In this document: positions 8,940-61,673 of the stretch, in pieces
Position numbering within the stretch: position 1 is the stretch's first letter
Layout of the letters: the number at the start of each line of letters is the position of its first letter
Assembly: GCF_001468135.1 (NCBI RefSeq)
Contig: NZ_LNYU01000091.1
Span: 105,751-169,750 of the forward strand
DNA length: 64,000 nt
Origin: Legionella santicrucis
GTDB lineage: Bacteria > Pseudomonadota > Gammaproteobacteria > Legionellales > Legionellaceae
Reading direction: 5' to 3'
The notes under the pieces: model-generated
Seen by the model: only the letters and a program-made list of their open reading frames with translations
Databases searched by the model: none
Told to the model about the DNA's origin: nothing
Translations under genes and position numbers: made by a program

Positions 8940-9140
8940 GTGGAAAATAAGACAGCGCGTTTTACCGTACTAATGGATCCGCAAAAAAAACAGGCGTTTG
9001 AAAAGCTATGCGCTTCCCAAGATTTGACTCCATCTCAAGTTGTCAGACAATTAATTCGAGAGTATCTTGAGAAACACGAGGTCCGTTATCTTGAAGAAGG
9101 TACAGACACAGCTCTTAATCCACAAGAAAAAAATGAGTAA
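8940..9140 (+). CDS. Ribbon-helix-helix (CopG-like) DNA-binding protein
   Basis: A 66-residue protein with a ribbon-helix-helix fold: the strand TARFTVLMD, the helix PQKKQAFEKLCASQ, the turn DLTPSQ and the second helix VVRQLIREYLEKH. Such proteins bind DNA as dimers through the paired strands and serve as antitoxins, plasmid regulators or small repressors. No toxin gene follows; the next gene, a SulP transporter, is convergent. It is therefore probably a solitary regulator whose target cannot be read from the sequence. The GTG start is supported by an upstream GAGGG. Confidence 0.75.
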   Translation: MENKTARFTVLMDPQKKQAFEKLCASQDLTPSQVVRQLIREYLEKHEVRYLEEGTDTALNPQEKNE

Positions 9141-9178
9141 ATTATCTTCTTTCCGTAGGCTGATGATCAAAAATTTTC

Positions 9179-10897
9179 TTAATCTGTATTCTGCACATTC
9201 TGAGCAAAGTCGCTTACAGCAATTTTCTGGAAAGATGAAGCTTCACTTAATTCATGAATGCTTTCTTTTAGAAAGGCTAATGCCTCATCAAAAGTGCAAA
9301 AATTATTTTTTTCTCCAATCAAATCGATAAGCCCAGATTTTTGCAATTTTCCCTTAACTCGGTTGTTAGCACCAGACAATATGACGTTGACACCACGCTT
9401 TTGTAAATCTTTAATAACTTCTTCTAAAGTTTGCAGCCCAGTTATATCGATAAAAGGAACCCATTTAAGTCGAATAATAAGATGTTTTGGATCGGTATGT
9501 GTTCCAGCTAAAGCACGTTCGAAATTTTCGACAGCGCCAAAAAAGAAAGGGCCTTCAACAGCAAAAACTAACACCCCATGTGGCAAAGTGATAAACCCTT
9601 TGTGTGCAAACTCCTGTACCAACTCCTGCTCTGTCGCCTGACGAACTTCAACGCTGGTTGCCATTCTTCGAAGAAACTGGAGTGTTGCCAGAATGACACC
9701 AATATTAACTGCGACTACCAGATCAACAAAAACAGTCAGTACAAATGTAATCAACAAAATCACTGCATCTGCCAAAGGAGCCCGATGTAACATTTTAATA
9801 AAATGCTTCGCTTCACTCATATTCCAAGCAACCACAAAAAGTATAGCGGCCAATGTGGCCAATGGAATATGGACCGCCAAAGGAGCCAATATCAATAAAA
9901 TAATGATTAAGGTAATTGAATGCACAATACCCGCAATTGGACTTGTACCACCATTACGAATATTAGTTGCTGTTCGTGCAATTGCACCTGTGGCAGCAAA
10001 TCCCCCAAACAAAGGAGCTACAATGTTGGCCAAGCCTTGACCCACTAGTTCTTGATTGGAGTCATGTCTAGTACCAGCCATGCCATCAGCAACCACAGCA
10101 GATAAAAGCGACTCGATGGCTCCAAGCATAGCAATTGTAAATGCAGGACCAATTAACTCAATGATTTTGTCCCATGTGACGGAAAGAGGTGCAAACCCAG
10201 GTATCCCCTGAGGAATCCCGCCAAAAGCGGTACCAATTGTTTTGATTCCTTTGAATTGAAATATTACTTGAATTAAGGTCGTAACGATCAGTGCCACCAA
10301 AGGCCCAGGAACGCGTTTTAGCATTGGCACTTTTGGACTGTAGACAACTAATATGATTGCAAGAACGGCTAGCAAAGTAGTTGCTAAGTGGAACTGAGGA
10401 AGCACTTGAATTAAATGGATCAATTTAGTATGAAAGTGTTCCCCATTAACAGCAGGTAGCCCAAAAAAATCTTTCCATTGCCCTACCCAGATAATAATGC
10501 CAATCCCTGCAGTAAAACCAACGATTACGGGATCAGGTATAAATTTAATAATAGTTCCCATTTTAGCCAAACCAAGTAATAGCAACATTACCCCTGCCAT
10601 CATACTTGCAATTTGTAAGCCTTCAATGCCGTATTTTGCTGTAATACCAGATAAAATAACGATAAATGCACCCGTTGGTCCTGCAATTTGAAGTCGACTT
10701 CCCCCAAATATCGAAACAAACAATCCAGCCACAATAGCGGTGTAGAGCCCTTGTTCTGGTTTAGCTCCCGATGCAATTGCGAATGCCATAGCAAGCGGTA
10801 AAGCAACAACACCTACAATAACTCCAGCAATAATATTATTGATCCAGTGTTTTGGCTGGAGAAGGCCTGCTTTATTTGCTTCTAGAATCGCTAACAT
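9179..10897 (-). CDS. SulP family anion transporter with STAS domain
   Basis: A 572-residue inner-membrane protein. The N-terminal 400 residues hold the SulP permease core: WINNIIAGVIVGVVALPLAM, then GPTGAFIVIL, VGFTAGIGIIIWVGQ, and ELVGQGLANIVAPLFGG with GAIARTATNIRNGG. The C-terminal STAS domain is at about 440-545 (FEGALAGT-type strand, RLKWVPFIDITGLQTLEEV). SulP proteins carry sulfate, bicarbonate or dicarboxylates; the substrate cannot be decided here. Residue order and length fit full-length bacterial SulP. The upstream sequence carries an 8-bp-arm palindrome over the predicted promoter. Confidence 0.92.
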   Translation of the reverse strand: MLAILEANKAGLLQPKHWINNIIAGVIVGVVALPLAMAFAIASGAKPEQGLYTAIVAGLFVSIFGGSRLQIAGPTGAFIVILSGITAKYGIEGLQIASMMAGVMLLLLGLAKMGTIIKFIPDPVIVGFTAGIGIIIWVGQWKDFFGLPAVNGEHFHTKLIHLIQVLPQFHLATTLLAVLAIILVVYSPKVPMLKRVPGPLVALIVTTLIQVIFQFKGIKTIGTAFGGIPQGIPGFAPLSVTWDKIIELIGPAFTIAMLGAIESLLSAVVADGMAGTRHDSNQELVGQGLANIVAPLFGGFAATGAIARTATNIRNGGTSPIAGIVHSITLIIILLILAPLAVHIPLATLAAILFVVAWNMSEAKHFIKMLHRAPLADAVILLITFVLTVFVDLVVAVNIGVILATLQFLRRMATSVEVRQATEQELVQEFAHKGFITLPHGVLVFAVEGPFFFGAVENFERALAGTHTDPKHLIIRLKWVPFIDITGLQTLEEVIKDLQKRGVNVILSGANNRVKGKLQKSGLIDLIGEKNNFCTFDEALAFLKESIHELSEASSFQKIAVSDFAQNVQNTD

Positions 10898-50935: not shown

Positions 50936-51658
50936 CTAACTTTTAAACTGTCCTAAAATATTAGCCAATTCCAGAGGTTTAGCCAGAAATGGGGCGTGAC
51001 CAGTAGCGATGTTTTTGATTTGCGAATCTTGAAATCCAAAACATGTTGCCATATCAAGCTGAGACTTGGGATTGACAACCCTATCCTTTTCACAAAGCAC
51101 ATAAGTGCTTTTTACTATGCTATATCGAGGATTTACTGCCTGTTGTGGTGTGTGATCAGGTAATTTATTTTTAGGTTTGATGCGCGAAGTAGCAAATTGT
51201 TTGTCTTCCTCCGAACAATCATGATAAAAAAGTTCTTTAGCACCTTCGGGATCAAGAGCTGTCCATAGTGAATTCTCAGCAGGGATAAATATAGAGGGAA
51301 GATTCGAATTATTAAAAGCAACAGCCATGTCCACTAATGAGTTATCTTCACGTGGAAGCCAAGCAGCTAGATAAAAAGTATGATGTATTTTGTAAGCATA
51401 CTTTTCACTTAGCCTAGCCACAAGGAGTCCGGCAAAGGAATGGGCAACAATACAAAATGGTTCACTAAGTTTATTGATCTCATTTTCCACGCAGTCAATC
51501 AATAGCTCTAAATTAACTTCATCGATTTCTGAGAACCGACTACCACTACCCGGCAAATCAAAGCAGGTAACTGAATGTCCTTGCTTGCATAAATAAGGGA
51601 TTAATTTTTCCCAGCACCACATGCCATGCCAAGAACCGTGAACTAACAAATAGTGCAT
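50936..51658 (-). CDS. Alpha/beta hydrolase (plant-esterase-like)
   Basis: A 240-residue alpha/beta hydrolase. The oxyanion region is LLVHGSWHGMWCWEKLIPYL, the nucleophile elbow FCIVAHSFAGLL with Ser, the acid Asp in YVLCEKDRVV and the base His near the C-terminus in NIATGHAPFLAKP. The HGSWHGMWCW start is characteristic of the salicylate/methyl-ester esterase group. It is nine bases downstream of a LysE-type exporter gene on the same strand and about 0.9 kb from the PKS, which it diverges from. It might act on the PKS product, or be unrelated. Substrate unknown. Confidence 0.87.
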   Translation of the reverse strand: MHYLLVHGSWHGMWCWEKLIPYLCKQGHSVTCFDLPGSGSRFSEIDEVNLELLIDCVENEINKLSEPFCIVAHSFAGLLVARLSEKYAYKIHHTFYLAAWLPREDNSLVDMAVAFNNSNLPSIFIPAENSLWTALDPEGAKELFYHDCSEEDKQFATSRIKPKNKLPDHTPQQAVNPRYSIVKSTYVLCEKDRVVNPKSQLDMATCFGFQDSQIKNIATGHAPFLAKPLELANILGQFKS

Positions 51659-51667
51659 AATACTCTC

Positions 51668-52300
51668 TTATTCATTGCTTTCTGCGATAAGGACCTTATA
51701 GGCAAGTGCGCAGAATATAAAGCCAGTTAATTTATTGATAATCTTTTGTGTCATTTGACTGCATAGTATAAATTGGTTTAAACGCGAGATAAGTAAGGCA
51801 TACCCCAAATTAATTATTGTTCCAGAAATAACAAATAAAATCCCAAGGGTGAGTAATTGCAGTTCGACACTTCCAGCCTCAATATCAACAAACTGTGGTA
51901 AAAAAGTTAAAAAGAAAATCCCCACTTTGGGGTTAAGTAAGTTAGTCAATACGCCATTTTGAAACGTCTTCCACCCTTTAGTCTGGTGCAGTTGATTACT
52001 GATTAATGAAGACGAGGGTTGTGTAAATGACTGCCAAGCCAGGTAGATTAAATAAATTGCACCTATGATTTTAACCATATTGAAAATTAGAGGAGACTCT
52101 TTCAAAAGAGTTGATAATCCAAAAGCGGTGGCAAAAGAATAAATAAAGATGCCCATGCTGATACCTAATGTAGCAATAACCCCCTGCTTTAACCCTTGCA
52201 GGCTTTTATTGCTTATATAAAGTACATCAGCGCCAGGAGTTAAATTAAGAAGAACAGTTGAAGTAATGAATAAAATTAATTGAGACAAATCAGGAAACAT
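51668..52300 (-). CDS. LysE/RhtB family exporter
   Basis: A 210-residue inner-membrane exporter with six predicted helices and the family opening LNLTPGADVLYISNKSL, G-x-x-A-TLGISMGIF and GAIYLIYLAWQSF. Members export amino acids, homoserine lactones or related small molecules. It is the first gene of a two-gene unit with the alpha/beta hydrolase and diverges from the PKS gene, sharing the 277-base promoter region. Export of a product connected to the PKS is a reasonable guess from context only. Confidence 0.9.
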   Translation of the reverse strand: MFPDLSQLILFITSTVLLNLTPGADVLYISNKSLQGLKQGVIATLGISMGIFIYSFATAFGLSTLLKESPLIFNMVKIIGAIYLIYLAWQSFTQPSSSLISNQLHQTKGWKTFQNGVLTNLLNPKVGIFFLTFLPQFVDIEAGSVELQLLTLGILFVISGTIINLGYALLISRLNQFILCSQMTQKIINKLTGFIFCALAYKVLIAESNE

Positions 52301-52577
52301 CTGTAAACCCCAGAATTTTGTTATTCAATTATATCCATAATTGGCTTCAATTACTAATCATGTAAAAGTAAAACAGTTCCTGTTTATCACAACCGTGAAG
52401 ATATTTTTTGCTTATCGATAGGTACAAAATTCTCACCATCAATATCCGCAAGTTCTGATTAAGTATAAACTATTGTTTTTTTTTCAATAGAACCAATTAT
52501 CGTTCTAATTGCGATACTATTCTCACCACAATGTGAAAACTCATTCTTTGAGTGCGATTCAGAAAAGGATTTAAAAA
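52301..52577. promoter_or_regulatory. Shared upstream region of the exporter and the PKS
   Basis: 277 bases between divergent genes. AT-rich, with no clear operator; AAAGGA lies nine bases before the PKS ATG. Coordinated control of both units is possible. Confidence 0.35.
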
Positions 52578-55500
52578 ATGCAAATACTTCATAAATTGTC
52601 TCGTGATACCGAATGCCGTGATACTGATATTGCTATTATTGGGATGGGTTGTCGTTTCCCAGGCGGAGCAAATTCGTACCAGCAATTCTGGCAACTGCTT
52701 TTAAACAAATTTGATGCCATTTCACCGGTTCCCCAATCAAGATGGGATTCAAGAAAATTTTATCATCCAGACAGCAAACATCCGGCAAAGACTACTATTC
52801 AATCGGCTGGATTTATTGATCAAAATCTTGAAGACTTTGATCCACTATTTTTCGGTATTTCACCACGAGAGGCAGCAGCGATTGATCCGCTGCAACGCTT
52901 ATTGTTAGAAGTATGCTGGGAATCTATTGAAGATGCGGGGATTCTGCTTAAGCAGCTTCATGGTAGCAAAACATCCGTGTTTATAGGTGGCTTTTGTCTT
53001 GATAATCAACTGCTTCAACTTAGCGAATTAAACCGTGCATTAATTGACTCACATACTGCGACCAGCTCAAGCATGACTTTATTAGCAAGCCGTCTTTCTT
53101 ATACTTTTGATTTAAAAGGGCCATGCCTAACGCTGGATACTGCTTGCTCGTCTTCTTTAGTTGCCCTGCATTATGCCTGCCAAAGCATTATTCACAAGGA
53201 AGCAGATATGGCTATTGCTGGTGGTGCCAACGCCATGTTCAAACCAGAAAATGCCATAGTGATGAGTAAGGGACAATTTTTATCTCCAGATGCGAAATGC
53301 ATGACTTTTGATGCCAAAGCAAATGGTTATGCTCGTGGCGAGGGGGTTGGCATTGTCATTTTAAAATCATTAAAACAAGCTTTATTAGACAACGACCGAA
53401 TTCATGCCATCATATCTGCAACAGGGGTCAACCAGGATGGACATACTTTAGGAATTACATTGCCCAACGGAACAGCGCAACATGATTTAATGCGAGAGGT
53501 CTATCATAAGGCACAAGTTACAGTAAATGATATAGGTTATATTGAAGCCCATGGAACAGGTACACAAGCAGGGGATATAACAGAGGTTAACAGTATTAAT
53601 GCCTTGTTTAACCAACGCAAAAAACCCGTTTATATAGGCTCTGTTAAAACCAATATTGGCCATTTGGAAGCAGCTGCAGGTGTTGCTGGGCTTATTAAAG
53701 CCGTTTTATGCTTAAAATATAAAAAAATACCAGCTAATTTACATTTTCATACCCCCAACCCTCATAGTTCATTGAATCAACTTACCGTACCTGTTGATAC
53801 TGTGGATTGGCCAGAGGAGTCTTATGCTTCGGTGAACTCTTTTGGCTATGGCGGGACTAATGCTCATGCATTGCTGCGCACCATTGAACACTGTTCGGCC
53901 CAGGATCAGGAAAAATTTGAGGTGGATTTGTCTATACCCGTTGTATTTAGCGCCATGAATAATGCACGATTGGATGCAGGCATTAAGCAATATCTTCACT
54001 GGCTGTCGTGTAATCCTGGGTTACATTTGCGAGATATCGCTTACACGATGAATCATAAAAAAACACATTTTAATTATCGTTTGATCACCTTGGTTAAATC
54101 TAATGAGGAACTTATTAATAAACTAGCCAGCTATAATGCAGGAGAGTCCGTAGCGAATTTATTTACTGCCAACACAAGTACAGAAGAAGTCGTTTTTGTA
54201 TTCACAGGTATGGGGCCACAACGGCCACAGATGGGAAAAGAGCTATTTGAAAAAGAACCCATATACAGACAAATGGTTCTTACTTGTGACTCGCACCTGC
54301 AAGCCATTGCAGGCTGGTCAATATTAGATGAATTATTTAAGCCAGAACAAGAAAGTTGTATGCATGAGCCCCGAATTGCACAATTGGCCAATTTTATTTT
54401 GCAAGTTAGTTTAACCACATTGTTATCTTCCTGGGGCGTAAAACCAGCAGCAGTAGTAGGACATAGCGTAGGAGAAATTGCCGCCTTTTATGTCAGTGGT
54501 GTGCTTGATTTACATGATGCCATTTTAATTTCTTACCATCGTAGTTGTCTGCAAAATAGTTTAATGGGCAGGGGAGAAATGCTTGCGGTAAATCTGTCAC
54601 GTGACGAGATTCAACCGTTACTTGGCGGAAAATCTGTAGGTATAGCGGCAGTAAATAGTCCCAATAATATTACTTTATCAGGCGATAAAAAAGACATTCT
54701 GGATATAGCTCAGCAATTAACTGAAAACAAAGTTTTTAATCGATTACTCCATGTTAATTTGGCGTATCACAGTCAAGTTCTGGAACCGATAAAAAATGAT
54801 TTTCTCAGCGCCATCGATTCTGTTCAGTTGTGTAAAAACACCATTCCTTTATATTCCACAGTAACAGGAAAAGCTATCTTATCCTCTACACTAACAGCAT
54901 CCTATTGGTGGGATAATGCCAGAAAAACTGTAGAATTTGAGCTGGCTATTAACTCGTTACTAGAAGATGGCTTTAATAGTTTTATTGAAATTGGACCCCA
55001 TCCGGTTCTTAAGAATTATTTAAATGAGATTGTCCAACAAACGCCACTGCAATTATTTCATACTTTAAACCGCCACAAAAAGAATGAAAGAGAGTATTTA
55101 CTCGGTACTATTTGTGATTTGTATTGTAGAGGTATCCCTATTAATTTTAACGCATTACAGCCCTCTGGCCAATTTATTGATACCCCCCTGCAATTGTGGG
55201 CAAGAGAAAAATATTGGCGAGAAAGCGAAGCGTCAAAACAACAACGGATTGGCTCAAATAATGAGAACTGGTTTTATCAGGAAATAGCCACCACTCCCCC
55301 TTCCTGGCAAGTGGAATTAAATGAAGCATTTTTTCCTTATCTACGCGATCATCGAATTTTTAATATGCTGGTTTTTCCGGGAGCAGCTTATATTTCAGCT
55401 GCAATTGCGTTAAATAAAAAAAGCGATCCTGTCTCGTCTTGCATTATTGAAGACATGCGATTTAAATCCATGCTTGTTTATAATGAGAATGATCCACTTG

Positions 55501-58500
55501 TTTTAACCTTGACTCAGCAAAAGGAAATAAACAAATTTAGCCTACATACTTCCAATCATTCTTTAAGTCAGGAACATTGTACTGCTTTCTTATACCCAAT
55601 GGATTTAACTTCACTAACATATCCTACGGATATAAATCAACTGAAAAACCAATTACAGGCTTTTAGTCCAATAGAACAATTATATGAATCCTTTGATAGA
55701 TTAGGCTTAATTTATGGGAGTTCTTTTAGAACGATTCATACTATTTATCGAGGTGATAATCAAGTATTAGCTCAGTTAGTTTGGAATGGAGAACATCAAG
55801 AACTATTTGATCAAACCTCTATTTATCCTCCTTTACTGGATGGTGCATTTCAATCATTAATAGCCTTGCAACTTGACAAATCTAAAGCGTATTTACCTCA
55901 TAGTATTAATAAAATTTTATTCTATAAACCACTGCCAAAATCTTGTTGGTCGCATGCTTTTTTAACTACTGTAAATGAAAAGACATTATTCGGTCATGTG
56001 GATATCGTTGATGAACATGGGGAGTTATGTCTGCAATTACAAGGCCTGCGCTTGAAGGCTGTCACATCAGCAAATTCGCTGCTTTCTTCGCACATTTACT
56101 ATAAGGTGCAGTGGCATGAGCATACACTACAACCTGTTATTAAAGAACATCTTCAGAATCAATCCTGGATAGTGATTTATGACGGCAGTACCCATTCAGA
56201 GTTGGTGCAGCAATTAAAAAATACAATTCCGAATTTAATCTTTGTGAGTTGGGCAGATGAACGTCTGCAAATCAGTGATGCCCAATGGCAAATTTCTGCA
56301 CATAGTTTGCAAGATTATTTATGGCTATGGCAATGTTACCAGCCTAAACATATTGTTTATATTAGCTCTATGGCAAATGATCTTTCCCTGGAATCTGTGT
56401 CGGAGCAAACCTGGGCGTTGATAGTACTAGCCCAATCCTTAAGCAAGCATAAAATTCCGCTTAACCTTTTTGTTCTCACCTGGGAAGCACAACATCCCTT
56501 TGATAAGAATCATCTAGCGTGCTCGGCATTGCCTAATTTGACCCGCGTTATAGAAAATGAAGTACCTTTTATTAATATTAAGGCCATAGATATCGATAGA
56601 GAAACTTCTTCCCAGCATATTCTTGCTGAATTGCTTTCATCGTTATCCTGCGACACTGTCGTTTATAGGAATAATGTTCGCTATATTCAACAAATTGAGC
56701 AGGGACAAGTGAAAAAAAATGAATTTCAAAATATATCTTTGAGTGAGCATAATGTTGAGTTGAAAATAACTCAACCTGGCTTATTGGATAGTCTCTTTTT
56801 TATCTCTGCTCCGATAAGAAAGCCTACGGCAAATGAAATTCAAATTAAAGTGTATGCCAGCGCGCTTAATTTCAAAGATTTATTAAAATTATCTAACAAA
56901 CTGGATGATAAAATTACTGACAATACTTTTTTTGGTGATTCACTTGGTATGGAGGTAGCCGGTGTGATCACTGATATAGGATCGCAGGTGACGGGTTTTC
57001 AATGTGGTGACGAAGTCATCGCACCCTTGCCTCAAAATTTCTCTTCATATGCTTATGTCGATCAACGTTATGTTCTGCGCAAACCGAGTACGCTTGATTT
57101 TTATCAAGCCCCGGTATTAACAGGTTTTTTGGCGGCTTACCGTGGATTAGTGCAAATTGCCGATATTCAACCAGGTGAAAAAGTCCTTATTCATAATGCA
57201 ACAGGCGGAGTGGGGATAGCAGCAATTCAAATAGCACAATGGAAACAAGCAGAAATTTATGCAACTGCTGGCACTACAGAAAAACGAGCCTATCTTCAAA
57301 CGCTAGGTATTAAATATATCTACGATTCAAGAACCTCATTATTCAAAGAGCAAGTATTGCGTGACACCTATGGTTATGGGGTTGATGTAGTGATTAATTC
57401 TATCGCAGGCGACGCGTTGATACATAGTTTTAATTTATTAGCGCCATATGGTCGGTTTATAGAAATTGGCAAGAGAGATATAGCTGAAAACACGCTTCTG
57501 CCTATGCAGGCATTTAATCAGAATATTAGCTTTTCAGCGATTGATATTGACCGCATGCTTGTAAATAAAATGGATAGTATTTCAGCCATGTCAAAAACCA
57601 TCTTGGCTCTGTTCGAAGAAGGTATTTTAACTCCACAGCCTGTTAAAGTTTTTCCAGCATCAGCAATTAAAGATGCTTTTCATTTTATGTTACAAAGTAA
57701 GCATATAGGCAAAATAGTTATTGATTATAAAAATCAGCAGTGTCCCGTAGCAATCCCATGTAAAACAGTCGATAGCCAGGCGTCATATATTGTTACTGGA
57801 GGTACTTCAGGGTTTGGTCTTGAAGCAGGAACATTACTTGCTAGAGAAGGTGCGGGCAAGGTGTATTTATTAAGCCGTCACGGACAAAGGGATCTTTCTT
57901 TGCCTTATGCCAATCTTGAAGCCAGGGCATTGGATGTCAGTGATAAAAAAGCTTTAACTGCATTATTTGTTGAGATTAGTCAAAGCCCATTTCCCCTGAA
58001 AGGTATTGTGCATAGCGCCATGGTTTTGGATGACTCTTTAATTCATCAACTCGAACGAGAGCAATTTGATAGGGTTTTACAACCTAAGGTAGCAGGAGCT
58101 ATTAATTTACATGAGTTAACCGAAACACTGGATCTGGATTTTTTTATAGTGTTCTCATCAATTTCATCGCTTATTGGAACTATAGGTCAAGCAAGCTACG
58201 TGGTAGCGAATGGCTTTTTAGATGCACTTGCTGATTATCGCCAACAGCATGATTTACCTTGCACTTCAATTAATTGGGGTGTATTTACACAAACAGGTGT
58301 TGTGGCCCGTAGTGAATATTTACAACCGCTTTTAAATACTGCAGGTATTAAAGGATTTAATAATGATACGGCATTACACATTCTAAATAATTTGTTCTGC
58401 GCACCTTCTCAGTCTTTAGGTATATTCGATATTGACTGGGAGCAGTGGTCAAAACAGTATAAAAAAATGGCATCAAAATCTTTATTTAACTCACTACTAA

Positions 58501-58820
58501 CGCAAAATAAGGAACACGAATTGACACACTCTTCATTACATGAAGAGTTAATGTTATTACCTGACAATGCAAGAATGGATCAACTAAGCCAAATAATTAG
58601 AGATAAACTAGCTGTTATTTTAAAAATGCAAGCGACACAAATCGATATTAACGAAAATATAACTTATTACGGCGTAGATTCTATTTTAGCTATAGAGTTG
58701 GTTAATCTGTTACGATCGACTCTGGAAATAACCCTATCGCCTGCTGATTTTATGGAGGGTAAAAGCATTAAAGAGTTAGCAGGTTTATTAAATGCACGGT
58801 ATCAACCTATCTCGGCTTAA
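52578..58820 (+). CDS. Type I polyketide synthase (KS-AT-DH-ER-KR-ACP)
   Basis: A 2,080-residue single-module synthase with full reducing capacity. KS (about 17-440): Cys in DTACSSSL (about 192), His in EAHGTGT and in KTNIGH. AT (540-840): Ser in GHSVGE (about 630) and AYHS, of the malonyl-CoA-selective type. DH (910-1190): HRIFNMLVFP, where the usual Gly of HxxxGxxxxP is Asn, and LLDGAFQS. A structural region with no methyltransferase motif follows. ER (1410-1720): SLGMEVAGVI and NATGGVGIAAIQIA. KR (1735-1930): TGGTSGFGLEAG, the LDD motif, Ser, Tyr and Asn in QASYVVANGF. ACP (2000-2075): GVDS at about 2031. No thioesterase. The layout equals that of mycobacterial Mas-type synthases. An adjacent acyltransferase may release the product. 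Confidence 0.95.
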   Translation: MQILHKLSRDTECRDTDIAIIGMGCRFPGGANSYQQFWQLLLNKFDAISPVPQSRWDSRKFYHPDSKHPAKTTIQSAGFIDQNLEDFDPLFFGISPREAAAIDPLQRLLLEVCWESIEDAGILLKQLHGSKTSVFIGGFCLDNQLLQLSELNRALIDSHTATSSSMTLLASRLSYTFDLKGPCLTLDTACSSSLVALHYACQSIIHKEADMAIAGGANAMFKPENAIVMSKGQFLSPDAKCMTFDAKANGYARGEGVGIVILKSLKQALLDNDRIHAIISATGVNQDGHTLGITLPNGTAQHDLMREVYHKAQVTVNDIGYIEAHGTGTQAGDITEVNSINALFNQRKKPVYIGSVKTNIGHLEAAAGVAGLIKAVLCLKYKKIPANLHFHTPNPHSSLNQLTVPVDTVDWPEESYASVNSFGYGGTNAHALLRTIEHCSAQDQEKFEVDLSIPVVFSAMNNARLDAGIKQYLHWLSCNPGLHLRDIAYTMNHKKTHFNYRLITLVKSNEELINKLASYNAGESVANLFTANTSTEEVVFVFTGMGPQRPQMGKELFEKEPIYRQMVLTCDSHLQAIAGWSILDELFKPEQESCMHEPRIAQLANFILQVSLTTLLSSWGVKPAAVVGHSVGEIAAFYVSGVLDLHDAILISYHRSCLQNSLMGRGEMLAVNLSRDEIQPLLGGKSVGIAAVNSPNNITLSGDKKDILDIAQQLTENKVFNRLLHVNLAYHSQVLEPIKNDFLSAIDSVQLCKNTIPLYSTVTGKAILSSTLTASYWWDNARKTVEFELAINSLLEDGFNSFIEIGPHPVLKNYLNEIVQQTPLQLFHTLNRHKKNEREYLLGTICDLYCRGIPINFNALQPSGQFIDTPLQLWAREKYWRESEASKQQRIGSNNENWFYQEIATTPPSWQVELNEAFFPYLRDHRIFNMLVFPGAAYISAAIALNKKSDPVSSCIIEDMRFKSMLVYNENDPLVLTLTQQKEINKFSLHTSNHSLSQEHCTAFLYPMDLTSLTYPTDINQLKNQLQAFSPIEQLYESFDRLGLIYGSSFRTIHTIYRGDNQVLAQLVWNGEHQELFDQTSIYPPLLDGAFQSLIALQLDKSKAYLPHSINKILFYKPLPKSCWSHAFLTTVNEKTLFGHVDIVDEHGELCLQLQGLRLKAVTSANSLLSSHIYYKVQWHEHTLQPVIKEHLQNQSWIVIYDGSTHSELVQQLKNTIPNLIFVSWADERLQISDAQWQISAHSLQDYLWLWQCYQPKHIVYISSMANDLSLESVSEQTWALIVLAQSLSKHKIPLNLFVLTWEAQHPFDKNHLACSALPNLTRVIENEVPFINIKAIDIDRETSSQHILAELLSSLSCDTVVYRNNVRYIQQIEQGQVKKNEFQNISLSEHNVELKITQPGLLDSLFFISAPIRKPTANEIQIKVYASALNFKDLLKLSNKLDDKITDNTFFGDSLGMEVAGVITDIGSQVTGFQCGDEVIAPLPQNFSSYAYVDQRYVLRKPSTLDFYQAPVLTGFLAAYRGLVQIADIQPGEKVLIHNATGGVGIAAIQIAQWKQAEIYATAGTTEKRAYLQTLGIKYIYDSRTSLFKEQVLRDTYGYGVDVVINSIAGDALIHSFNLLAPYGRFIEIGKRDIAENTLLPMQAFNQNISFSAIDIDRMLVNKMDSISAMSKTILALFEEGILTPQPVKVFPASAIKDAFHFMLQSKHIGKIVIDYKNQQCPVAIPCKTVDSQASYIVTGGTSGFGLEAGTLLAREGAGKVYLLSRHGQRDLSLPYANLEARALDVSDKKALTALFVEISQSPFPLKGIVHSAMVLDDSLIHQLEREQFDRVLQPKVAGAINLHELTETLDLDFFIVFSSISSLIGTIGQASYVVANGFLDALADYRQQHDLPCTSINWGVFTQTGVVARSEYLQPLLNTAGIKGFNNDTALHILNNLFCAPSQSLGIFDIDWEQWSKQYKKMASKSLFNSLLTQNKEHELTHSSLHEELMLLPDNARMDQLSQIIRDKLAVILKMQATQIDINENITYYGVDSILAIELVNLLRSTLEITLSPADFMEGKSIKELAGLLNARYQPISA

Positions 58821-59377
58821 CCCTCGAGATTGATCAAGGATTGAACCTGAATGGTCATTGCAATAACTGGTTGTTCATACCCTTCAGGCTTAATCCAGTC
58901 ACTACAGGGACTGAATTGATAATGCTGGTAATACGGCACCATCTCTTCGTGTGCTTCGATAAAGATACGCTGGATATTTTTATCTCTTGCATGAGTTAAT
59001 ACTGTTTGCAGTAAACAGTAAGAGACTGAGGTATGATGATATTCCGGCAATATACAAAAAAAACTGAATAATGCACAGTTGTCTGTCAGATAATGAGCCG
59101 GCACCTTATGATCTTTTAATATAAAATTGTCTGTACTTTCCAGACAGCTGAAAGGAGTTACACGCAAGGTCCCTACTGGATTATCATTGATGCTAGCTAG
59201 GAACAGATAAGATATATCGTCAATTTGGTTGGAGAATAGTTGAAGCCCATGATTCATGCCAGGAGGACTATGATGCTTATATACCTGACTAAAGATATAA
59301 TACCGTAATCTAAATATCTTTTCTCTTTGCTGGATATCCCGCTTACTGACAAGTTTAATATCAATATGTTCTTTCAT
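58817..59377 (-). CDS. GNAT-fold acyltransferase, autoinducer-synthase/FeeM-like
   Basis: A 186-residue protein of the GNAT superfamily. The N-terminal FRLRYYIFSQVYKH and HGLQLFSNQIDDISYLFLAS, then NPVGTLRVTPF, and a C-terminal YYQHYQFSPCSD, follow the pattern of N-acyl amino acid synthases (FeeM) and acyl-homoserine-lactone synthases, which take acyl groups from carrier proteins. The start at 59377 has AGAGAG upstream and is preferred to 59425. The gene is convergent with the PKS and their stop codons overlap by two bases, so it is not co-transcribed, but its placement suggests it might unload the PKS. This role is inference. Confidence 0.7.
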   Translation of the reverse strand: MKEHIDIKLVSKRDIQQREKIFRLRYYIFSQVYKHHSPPGMNHGLQLFSNQIDDISYLFLASINDNPVGTLRVTPFSCLESTDNFILKDHKVPAHYLTDNCALFSFFCILPEYHHTSVSYCLLQTVLTHARDKNIQRIFIEAHEEMVPYYQHYQFSPCSDWIKPEGYEQPVIAMTIQVQSLINLEG

Positions 59378-59669
59378 GTGAAACTCTCTATGGGGACAAA
59401 AGATTGAATGTAACTCAAGGGTCATGAAACGTCTATTTTTATAAACTATTTTCGCATTAGTTATTAAAAAATCTTCAAAACCAATTCTTTTGATTTGAAT
59501 AAATTAATCAATAAATTTTTAGAAAATACTCCAAAAAAGATCTGGTGCGTACATCAGGCCCAGTTTTTTGTAACTTTGTCGACCTATTTAACCGCATTAT
59601 CCGTACCGTGAGTAAATCTTAATTGGCTATAATTAATATATATTATTGGTTTTAAGAGAATAAGTTAAA
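59378..59669. other. Intergenic region upstream of the Fic-ankyrin gene
   Basis: About 290 AT-rich bases with divergent promoters. A CTTAAT...AATTAATAT stretch near 59619-59642 faintly resembles PmrA-regulated Legionella promoters. No gene is seen. Confidence 0.3.
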
Positions 59670-61673
59670 ATGCACCTCTCCCATATAGATTTTTTATTAC
59701 CTGAACCTCAACACGCCGTTCATAGGTCTACTGAAATTCCGAGATTATCTAATCCAGAAGAAGCTCTTTCTCATTTCAAAAAAAACTATCCAAGAGATAG
59801 ATTATGGCAATTAGCTGTGGATGGTGCTCTTTATTCCCCTTGGGAGTGCGCCTATCAGGCACGACATGATGCAGGATATGATTCTAAATTGAAGGATAAA
59901 AAAAGACCTGAAAGAGGTTGGAGACTTTATGAATTAAGAGAACCAGGAAGTCTTGCGGCATTTTTTAGAGGCTTAAAAAGAGCCATGCAAGATATAGAGG
60001 ACAAAACTATTAGTGAACAATTAATAAAAGACTTGCATGCAGCTGTCAGTATCAATGTGAATGGAGAAATGATAGAAGAACTAAAGCCTGGCGAGTTTAA
60101 ACAACGAGAGAACCAATTTACAATTTATTTTGAAAAAAAACGCGTCACAGTAAAAGGTTTAAAAGATTTTCTTGATAAATTAGAAAATAAGAAATTTGGC
60201 GATATTAAAGATAACGATTCAGCTATCTTATTGTATTTTAAAAATAAAAGTCAAAATACACCGTTGTTTTGTGAGAACTTTGCAAAAATTAAAGCAAAAT
60301 ACCATCTAGCAAATAACGAAGAGCTTGCTCAATTTATTCTGGATAATTGTATTGGTTATAATTACAACGCCCCATGGCCGAATTATGTTAAAAGTTTATT
60401 AAAAGAAGCTATAGAAGAATATAATACAGAGCTTACTGAATTATATAATAATACGAATCCTGATCCCGATGCTATTTTAGAGTTGATCGGGAAAACGATT
60501 GAAACCTGTGAACAAATTCATCCCTTTATTGATGCCAATGGCAGAACTTTTGTTAATTTACTTTTAAATCGATTGTTAATACAAAATGGTTTTCCCCCCG
60601 CTACATTTTTTCAGCCAAATCTTTTTGATGCACATGATTACCATGTGGAAGTTTTAAAGCGTGCCATGCTGAATACCTTAGAAATTTATAAAGGCCAAAA
60701 TGTGTTTGGTTTTAATATAAGAGAGATGTGTAAAGAAGATCAGGAGTTTTTTAATCCATGTAATCTCTATTTAATATCTCTAGATGATAAAGCACAAATA
60801 GATAAGAATACTTTAAAAAGAGCAAGGGAAAAGGGCACACCTATCTTAATTAAAATAGGAGATAAATTTCAAATATATGGCGACTCACGAGGAAATGGGA
60901 TGTGGAATTTCACCGAAATTGAAGACTCGAATTTTAATCTTAGGGCATTACCTTTTGAGGAAGGAATCATTAAACGTGATAATCCACTATTCTCAACAGA
61001 TCTTATCGAGCGATTAAAACCTGGCCATGTGTTTTTTGCAAATTTTTGCGAATTGGAAGAATTTGAAAAAATGAGTGATTCTTCCCCATTGGATCAAGAA
61101 ATGCTAAGAAAGCTCTTGAAAAATGCACTCATTAGGGATGATGTTGAAAAGTTTATTGAGCTTTTAGAAGAGGGGGTAAATCTAGAAGACATCAATGAAG
61201 TACCTATTTTATTTTTTGCGATTTCGCAAAATGCCTCTGATATTGCTCGTTACCTGCAAGAGAAAGGAATATGCAAGTCTGATGCTGCATTTAAGGGAGA
61301 AACACCCTTAATGTATGCGATAAAAAACAATAAAAAATGTGTGAACATTTTAGCAGAATATATAGATGACATTGATGCATTAGAAAAAGCCAAAAGACTG
61401 TGCAAGCAAGACTCAGAGGACCATTTCGATCTTGACCGAAGAATCCAAACATTAAAAAAAGCAAACAAAGGTTTAAAGGATAAAACTTCTCAGCAATCAT
61501 CTCAAACAGCGACTCAAACTTCCCCACCCCACTTGGAATCCTCAATAAATTTCTCTTATTCAATAAGCAAGAGAACAACAATTTTTTCACCAAATGCATC
61601 TAAAGAAGCGTCACAAACAAATTCTACTGAAGCTAAGACGAGCTCAACTTTGCAATCAAGAAAACCTAAGTGA
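59670..61673 (+). CDS. Fic-domain protein with ankyrin-like repeats, putative effector
   Basis: A 667-residue soluble protein. A Fic fold spans about 85-330, with the catalytic loop HPFIDANGRTFVN (His284, Arg292) and a likely flap before it. The usual HxFx(D/E)(G/A)NGRxxR lacks the final Arg (Asn instead). Residues 480-585 form two or three ankyrin-like hairpins (DDVEKFIELLEEGVNLEDIN, GETPLMYAIKNNKKCVNILA). The last 60 residues are rich in Ser, Thr and Gln, like Dot/Icm secretion tails. The Fic-ankyrin order is that of AnkX, which phosphocholinates host Rab1. Whether it transfers AMP, phosphocholine or something else is unknown. Confidence 0.82.
   Translation: MHLSHIDFLLPEPQHAVHRSTEIPRLSNPEEALSHFKKNYPRDRLWQLAVDGALYSPWECAYQARHDAGYDSKLKDKKRPERGWRLYELREPGSLAAFFRGLKRAMQDIEDKTISEQLIKDLHAAVSINVNGEMIEELKPGEFKQRENQFTIYFEKKRVTVKGLKDFLDKLENKKFGDIKDNDSAILLYFKNKSQNTPLFCENFAKIKAKYHLANNEELAQFILDNCIGYNYNAPWPNYVKSLLKEAIEEYNTELTELYNNTNPDPDAILELIGKTIETCEQIHPFIDANGRTFVNLLLNRLLIQNGFPPATFFQPNLFDAHDYHVEVLKRAMLNTLEIYKGQNVFGFNIREMCKEDQEFFNPCNLYLISLDDKAQIDKNTLKRAREKGTPILIKIGDKFQIYGDSRGNGMWNFTEIEDSNFNLRALPFEEGIIKRDNPLFSTDLIERLKPGHVFFANFCELEEFEKMSDSSPLDQEMLRKLLKNALIRDDVEKFIELLEEGVNLEDINEVPILFFAISQNASDIARYLQEKGICKSDAAFKGETPLMYAIKNNKKCVNILAEYIDDIDALEKAKRLCKQDSEDHFDLDRRIQTLKKANKGLKDKTSQQSSQTATQTSPPHLESSINFSYSISKRTTIFSPNASKEASQTNSTEAKTSSTLQSRKPK

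What the first reader, a model, noticed from the sequence alone, without database searches (positions are those of the whole stretch)
50936..59377. Compact polyketide cluster: Mas-like PKS, acyltransferase, exporter and hydrolase
A fully reducing single-module PKS without thioesterase has the domain order of mycobacterial fatty-acid-elongating synthases. It is bracketed by a FeeM/autoinducer-synthase-like GNAT protein, which could take the chain from the ACP, and by a LysE-type exporter plus a hydrolase. The predicted product is a long saturated acyl chain joined to an amine: a possible signal or surface lipid not described for this genus to my knowledge. No phosphopantetheinyl transferase is in the window.
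Basis: partly seen in the sequence, partly recalled or inferred. Interest (0 to 1): 0.75.

Follow-up and report, generated by a model that had tools for sequence, protein, structure and literature searches.

The report
Legionella polyketide synthase paired with N-acyltransferase
A Legionella genome carries a small movable two-gene unit, a fatty-chain-building polyketide synthase and a FeeM-like enzyme that probably hangs its chain on an amine, and related enzymes sit beside other fatty-chain synthases in some unrelated bacteria.

Summary
At 52578-58820 there is an intact 2,080-aa fully reducing single-module PKS (KS-AT-DH-ER-KR-ACP, no thioesterase). At 58817-59377 on the other strand there is a GNAT that passes Pfam's FeeM cut-off. 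The LysE exporter and hydrolase are real, but comparison removes them from the unit: the block shared with the nearest relative is 52506-59505, only PKS plus GNAT, 93.9% identical in DNA and at a different chromosomal place. The same convergent pair, stop codons overlapping, is in L. norrlandica, where the PKS frame is broken. Orthologues of both occur in the same 3 of 45 genomes of the genus. Both evolve under purifying selection between the two nearest genomes.
The new evidence is recurrence. FeeM-like GNATs also adjoin PUFA-type synthases: fused to a FabV-type reductase in two further Legionella, closing a pfa-like operon in another gammaproteobacterial family, and overlapping a pfa-like synthase in one genus of another class. 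Many other GNAT hits have no such neighbour. Best reading: a FeeM-type N-acyl synthase takes the chain from the PKS carrier protein and amidates an unknown amine. This is a new variant of a known kind. Product, role and acceptor are unknown. The genome has one PPTase, elsewhere.

The parts
52506..59505 (.). conserved two-gene cassette (PKS + GNAT)
   Evidence: Single blastn block, 93.9% over 7,002 columns, against G006 (L015); no other match of L015 (18 kb) or L034 (15 kb) to the window at E 1e-5. L. norrlandica (L016) shares 52561-59377 at 76%.
52578..58820 (+). fully reducing single-module type I PKS, 2,080 aa
   Evidence: Pfam; PDB relatives; dN/dS 0.146 against G006
52623..53750 (+). KS domain (residues 16-391)
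   Evidence: PF00109 276.4 and PF02801 133.9 bits; DTACSSS
54192..55091 (+). AT domain (residues 539-838)
   Evidence: PF00698 210.3 bits; GHSVG, and LAYH at the specificity position
55299..56075 (+). DH domain (residues 908-1166)
   Evidence: PF21089 40.0 and PF14765 90.0 bits; HxxxNxxxxP, DGAFQ
56760..57725 (+). ER domain (residues 1395-1716)
   Evidence: PF08240, PF00107, PF13602; limits from TIGR02824; CurK ER 224 bits, MAS ER 205 bits
57780..58289 (+). KR domain (residues 1735-1904)
   Evidence: PF08659 174.5 bits; LDD and catalytic Tyr/Asn motifs
58593..58790 (+). ACP domain (residues 2006-2071), GVDS
   Evidence: PF00550 49.6 bits
58817..59377 (-). FeeM-like GNAT N-acyltransferase, 186 aa from the conserved start
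51668..52300 (-). LysE/RhtB-type exporter: neighbour, not part of the conserved unit
   Evidence: PF01810 117.7 bits; outside the conserved block
50936..51658 (-). alpha/beta hydrolase, 9 bp from lysE: neighbour, not part of the conserved unit
   Evidence: PF12697 75.4 bits; coordinates; outside the conserved block

Best explanation
The unit is a mobile two-gene pathway for an N-acylated lipid. The PKS builds a reduced acyl chain iteratively on its own ACP. Having no thioesterase, it hands the thioester to the FeeM-like GNAT, which acylates a free amine (amino acid or small amine) and so releases the chain. Shown by computation: domain make-up, FeeM family match and compatible fold, strict pairing, conservation at non-orthologous places, purifying selection, and linkage of related GNATs to other reducing synthases. 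Inferred: malonyl as extender (bulky Tyr in the AT specificity motif), full reduction in every cycle, ACP as the GNAT's donor, amide product. Unknown: starter, chain length, amine, biological role.
For: PKS and GNAT orthologues occur in the same 3 of 45 genus genomes, each time tail to tail with overlapping stops. GNAT passes the FeeM cut-off. Among the 50 structural rows shown, the three longest alignments are to N-acyl synthases: RpaI 174, FeeM 170, TofI 168 residues. In the three PKS-linked GNATs the GxG/A positions of the usual CoA loop (motif recalled) read S-V-S or S-V-T, while the G008, G034 and G146 proteins keep GVA, GIG, GVG; this fits a carrier-protein donor. Linkage recurs: reductase-GNAT fusion beside PUFA-type proteins in G008 (Pfam) and G034 (by similarity); GNAT right after a pfaD-like gene in G146; GNAT overlapping a pfa-like synthase and facing a PPTase in G811 and, by similarity, in G797. 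dN/dS 0.146 (PKS) and 0.094 (GNAT), own Nei-Gojobori script.
Confidence: 0.55

Rival explanations
1. The PKS makes an unusual fatty acid for membrane or surface lipids, passed on by general acyltransferases; the GNAT is an ordinary acetyltransferase that modifies or detoxifies something else.
For: Mas-type synthases make lipid chains (recalled). Foldseek's best rows for the GNAT are small-molecule and protein acetyltransferases. Tobias et al. suggest that type I PKSs of some Legionella could make unusual fatty acids or lipids.
Against: FeeM family hit, lost CoA-loop glycines, strict pairing and recurrence with other synthases.
Confidence: 0.25
2. A four-gene cluster as first read: PKS, GNAT, LysE exporter for the amide product and a hydrolase that trims or degrades it.
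For: Adjacency; LysE-type proteins export amino acids and derivatives (recalled); lysE and hydrolase lie on one strand 9 bp apart.
Against: The conserved block ends at 52506, before lysE; no match for either protein in the stretches held around the pair in G006 and L. norrlandica. Their presence elsewhere in those genomes was not searched.
Confidence: 0.1
3. A drifting genomic passenger: a transferred pair kept only by chance and decaying.
For: Patchy distribution (3 of 45), different places in two relatives, broken PKS in L. norrlandica, a 76-bp GNAT relic elsewhere in the own genome.
Against: Intact in two genomes with dN/dS 0.146 and 0.094.
Confidence: 0.1

Closest known systems
Mycocerosic acid synthase (Mas) and Pks2-type mycobacterial synthases
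   Same: Single fully reducing module KS-AT-DH-ER-KR-ACP, aligned over residues 12-2068 (945 bits), no thioesterase; chain removed by a separate acyltransferase (PapA type, recalled).
   Different: NCBIfam Pks2 equivalog model scores 1126.8 bits against a cut-off of 2400; AT reads LAYH and GHSVG where the aligned 6-dEB synthase has YASH and GHSQG; the linked partner is a GNAT.
FeeM, N-acyl amino acid synthase (2g0b, PF21926)
   Same: Family cut-off passed; same fold over 170 residues.
   Different: FeeM works with a small stand-alone ACP, FeeL (recalled); here the linked carrier is the ACP of a type I PKS. 13% identity in the structural alignment.
Acyl-homoserine-lactone synthases (LuxI type: RpaI, TofI)
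   Same: Same fold with long alignments (174 and 168 residues).
   Different: No Pfam autoinducer-synthase hit; no LuxR-type protein among the 8 neighbouring proteins scanned.
PUFA synthases (PfaA-D) and secondary-lipid synthases
   Same: Iterative type I synthases whose loci in G008, G034, G146, G797 and G811 carry FeeM-like GNATs.
   Different: The window PKS is not of this type: PS-DH rather than FabA-type dehydratase, and a single ACP.

Membership tests
FeeM N-acyl amino acid synthases (PF21926) | Score above the curated family cut-off | tested here: met
   37.9 bits against 27
FeeM N-acyl amino acid synthases (PF21926) | FeeM/LuxI-type GNAT fold over the full length | tested here: inconclusive
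FeeM N-acyl amino acid synthases (PF21926) | Transfers an acyl chain from a carrier protein to an amino acid | not testable with these tools
   needs an enzyme assay
Mas/Pks2 mycobacterial synthases | KS-AT-DH-ER-KR-ACP in one chain, no thioesterase | tested here: met
   aligned with 9d2z over residues 12-2068
Mas/Pks2 mycobacterial synthases | Curated equivalog cut-off for Pks2 | tested here: not met
   NF041183 1126.8 bits against 2400. Hence 'Mas-like architecture', not a member
Mas/Pks2 mycobacterial synthases | Methylmalonyl-specific AT (YASH / GHSQG, recalled rule) | tested here: inconclusive
   Motifs read LAYH and GHSVG; suggests malonyl, but the rule is rough
LuxI-type AHL synthases | Pfam autoinducer-synthase family match | tested here: not met
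   Not among the 4 families listed at E 0.1
LuxI-type AHL synthases | AHL-synthase fold | tested here: inconclusive

The most novel reading that the evidence does not exclude
FeeM/LuxI-type GNATs are a general, so far unnamed chain-release module for iterative reducing type I synthases (Mas-like PKS and PUFA-type synthases), perhaps recruited more than once, turning their ACP-bound chains into N-acyl amines; Legionella carries two versions of it, one of them a reductase-GNAT fusion that would couple the last enoyl reduction to amide release.
Probability: 0.45. Interest if true: 0.75.

Novelty: new variant of a known kind. Interest (0 to 1): 0.55.

Why it matters
PUFA-type and Mas-like synthases usually give fatty acids for membranes or surface lipids. 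A linked N-acyl synthase would instead make lipoamino-acid or fatty-amide molecules, a class known for signals, surfactants and host-active lipids. The pattern over four kinds of locus gives a concrete rule for genome mining and a testable chain-release chemistry, and it offers candidates for the poorly known small molecules of Legionella, which lives inside amoebae.

Tried and rejected
Four-gene cluster: rejected for lack of conservation; whether LysE and hydrolase exist elsewhere in the two relatives was not searched. Terminal repeats at the cassette ends: one 11-bp direct match in the window, none of 11 bp or more in G006, within about 360 bp on each side. In G006 the 239 bp just upstream of the shared block match another contig of the own genome, perhaps an insertion-sequence piece, not followed. 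Plasmid carriage: no tblastn match of the GNAT in 72,556 plasmid records. Genome scan by peptide patterns: the single query confirmed nothing; the alignment gave two loci, L. norrlandica and one Legionella metagenome assembly. GNAT in the order: 5 of 143 genomes including the own, one genus. Class: 19 of 369 including the own; 5 of the 18 other contexts viewed, 1 (the best-scoring) beside a PKS. Phylum: 18 of 398 including the own; 6 of the 17 other contexts viewed, 2 (one genus) beside a PKS. The remaining 13 and 11 contexts were not viewed. Contexts were judged by eye from ORF lists; Pfam was run on part of them. FeeM family in the genus: 9 of 45 genomes, 4 of them PKS-linked, 5 not. Defence-system models: no hit. 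L. longbeachae genome paper PMC2824747: no occurrence of 'polyketide', 'PKS' or 'acyltransferase' in its main text. L. lytica genome paper PMC11828895: term passages only; it maps type I PKS clusters, none described in those passages with an N-acyl enzyme. Literature: searches (25 of 94 listed; 24 of 24; 4 of 4; 1 of 1; none found; 9 of 9; 5 of 5; 20 of 30; 12 of 15,307) showed, by titles and abstract starts, no paper that joins a FeeM-type GNAT with a type I PKS or PUFA synthase. PMC13291983 and PMC3098273: term counts and passages only, no 'Legionella' or 'GNAT'. Most subscription journals are not in that library. A KS phylogeny with Mas was not made: no reference sequences at hand. PDB search of the AT alone at E 1e-60 gave nothing, at 1e-30 48 sequences.

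Full report
What is there. The window lies in a 4.82-Mb genome of 92 contigs, in a genus that includes Legionella norrlandica: contig C54 of G016, same genus, agrees in length (22,374 bases) and content with NZ_JNCF01000047.1 of L. norrlandica LEGN. The PKS at 52578-58820 is one open frame of 2,080 aa with KS, AT, DH, ER, KR and ACP in this order and no thioesterase hit. Catalytic motifs are in place; the DH motif has Asn for Gly and the AT reads GHSVG and LAYH. I read the bulky Tyr as favouring malonyl, hence a straight chain; this is inference. The best full-length relative of known structure is mycocerosic acid synthase, but the curated Pks2 model's cut-off is not reached, so it is Mas-like in architecture only.

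What belongs together. Against the nearest relative G006 (UvrC 96% identical) the shared block is 52506-59505; nothing else in the 33 kb held around it (L015, L034) matches the window. In G006 the pair sits behind two genes that I read by eye as ubiD-like and flavin-reductase-like; the own genome has those two at 402-404 kb of C91 with a different gene beyond them. Conversely, the G006 region that matches the window at 62.9-63.7 kb and at 24.5-28 kb has about 13 kb of mostly other sequence between, instead of the window's 28-62 kb. So the pair lies at different places in the two genomes. L. norrlandica (UvrC 80%) has it at 72-82% protein identity, PKS frame broken in two. Orthologues of both genes are in the same 3 of 45 genomes; the three next closest by UvrC (G021, G011, G010) have neither. 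dN/dS between own genome and G006 is 0.146 for the PKS and 0.094 for the GNAT. LysE and hydrolase lie outside the block.

Recurrence. The same GNAT search hits two more Legionella genomes, where the domain is the C-terminal part of a FabV-type enoyl reductase. In G008 Pfam shows the reductase and GNAT parts, a neighbour with three FabA-like domains and one with KS, AT, four ACPs and KR; an NRPS-like gene stands beside it, by eye. G034 has the same set by similarity. In the class-wide sample the top other hit, G146 of another family, lies right after a pfaD-like gene, a six-FabA protein and KS-containing frames. In the phylum-wide sample G797 and G811, one genus of another class, have a FeeM-family GNAT (40.7 and 42.5 bits); in G811 its frame overlaps the end of a KS/FabA synthase and faces a PPTase, and G797 looks the same. 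A tree unites the Legionella and G146 proteins (91/89, not starred) and sets G797/G811 apart; it needs two changes of the PKS-linked label, but its starred branches force only one, so two recruitments are suggested, not shown. Against this, 5 FeeM-family hits of the genus and 8 of 11 distant hits viewed are not beside a PKS.

Mechanism. Most likely the PKS extends and fully reduces a chain on its ACP, and the GNAT takes it from the phosphopantetheine arm to an amine. The single PPTase of the genome would activate the ACP, as proposed for Legionella in PMC5126622 (first part of Results and whole Discussion read). Starter, length, amine and role are open.

Known and new. FeeM-type synthases using a free ACP and Mas-type synthases using PapA-type transferases are known (recalled). 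Type I PKSs for unusual lipids in Legionella were mentioned in 2016. I found no paper joining a FeeM-type GNAT to a type I PKS or PUFA synthase in the searches named in Tried and rejected, judged from listings; that library lacks most subscription journals.

Noticed in passing
L017 7129-8970(-) and L018 8124-9944(-): FabV-type enoyl reductase fused to a FeeM-like GNAT within a PUFA-type PKS cluster with an NRPS-like gene in two Legionella genomes.
   Followed up: partly
L094 9393-9974(+); L122 15937-16527(-); L123 9871-10461(-): FeeM-family GNATs ending pfa-like synthase loci outside Legionella; in L123 a PPTase gene (Pfam ACPS) faces the GNAT, in L122 a similar one.
   Followed up: partly
L019 1279-1354 (own genome, contig C53): A 76-bp relic of the GNAT gene, 94.7% identical to window 58847-58922, just after a gene that looks by eye like a short-chain dehydrogenase.
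   Followed up: no
window 59670-61673(+): Protein with Fic and ankyrin domains, matching the AnkX effector model at 130.9 bits, far below its cut-off of 1400.
   Followed up: no
window about 28050-61900: Region largely without match at the corresponding place of the nearest relative G006, where about 13 kb of mostly other sequence stands; the cassette lies in it.
   Followed up: partly
L032 near 9060-9460 (G001): FeeM-family match with two stop codons inside, a broken gene.
   Followed up: no
L016 12177-18121(-): PKS of L. norrlandica is split into two frames while its GNAT is open.
   Followed up: no
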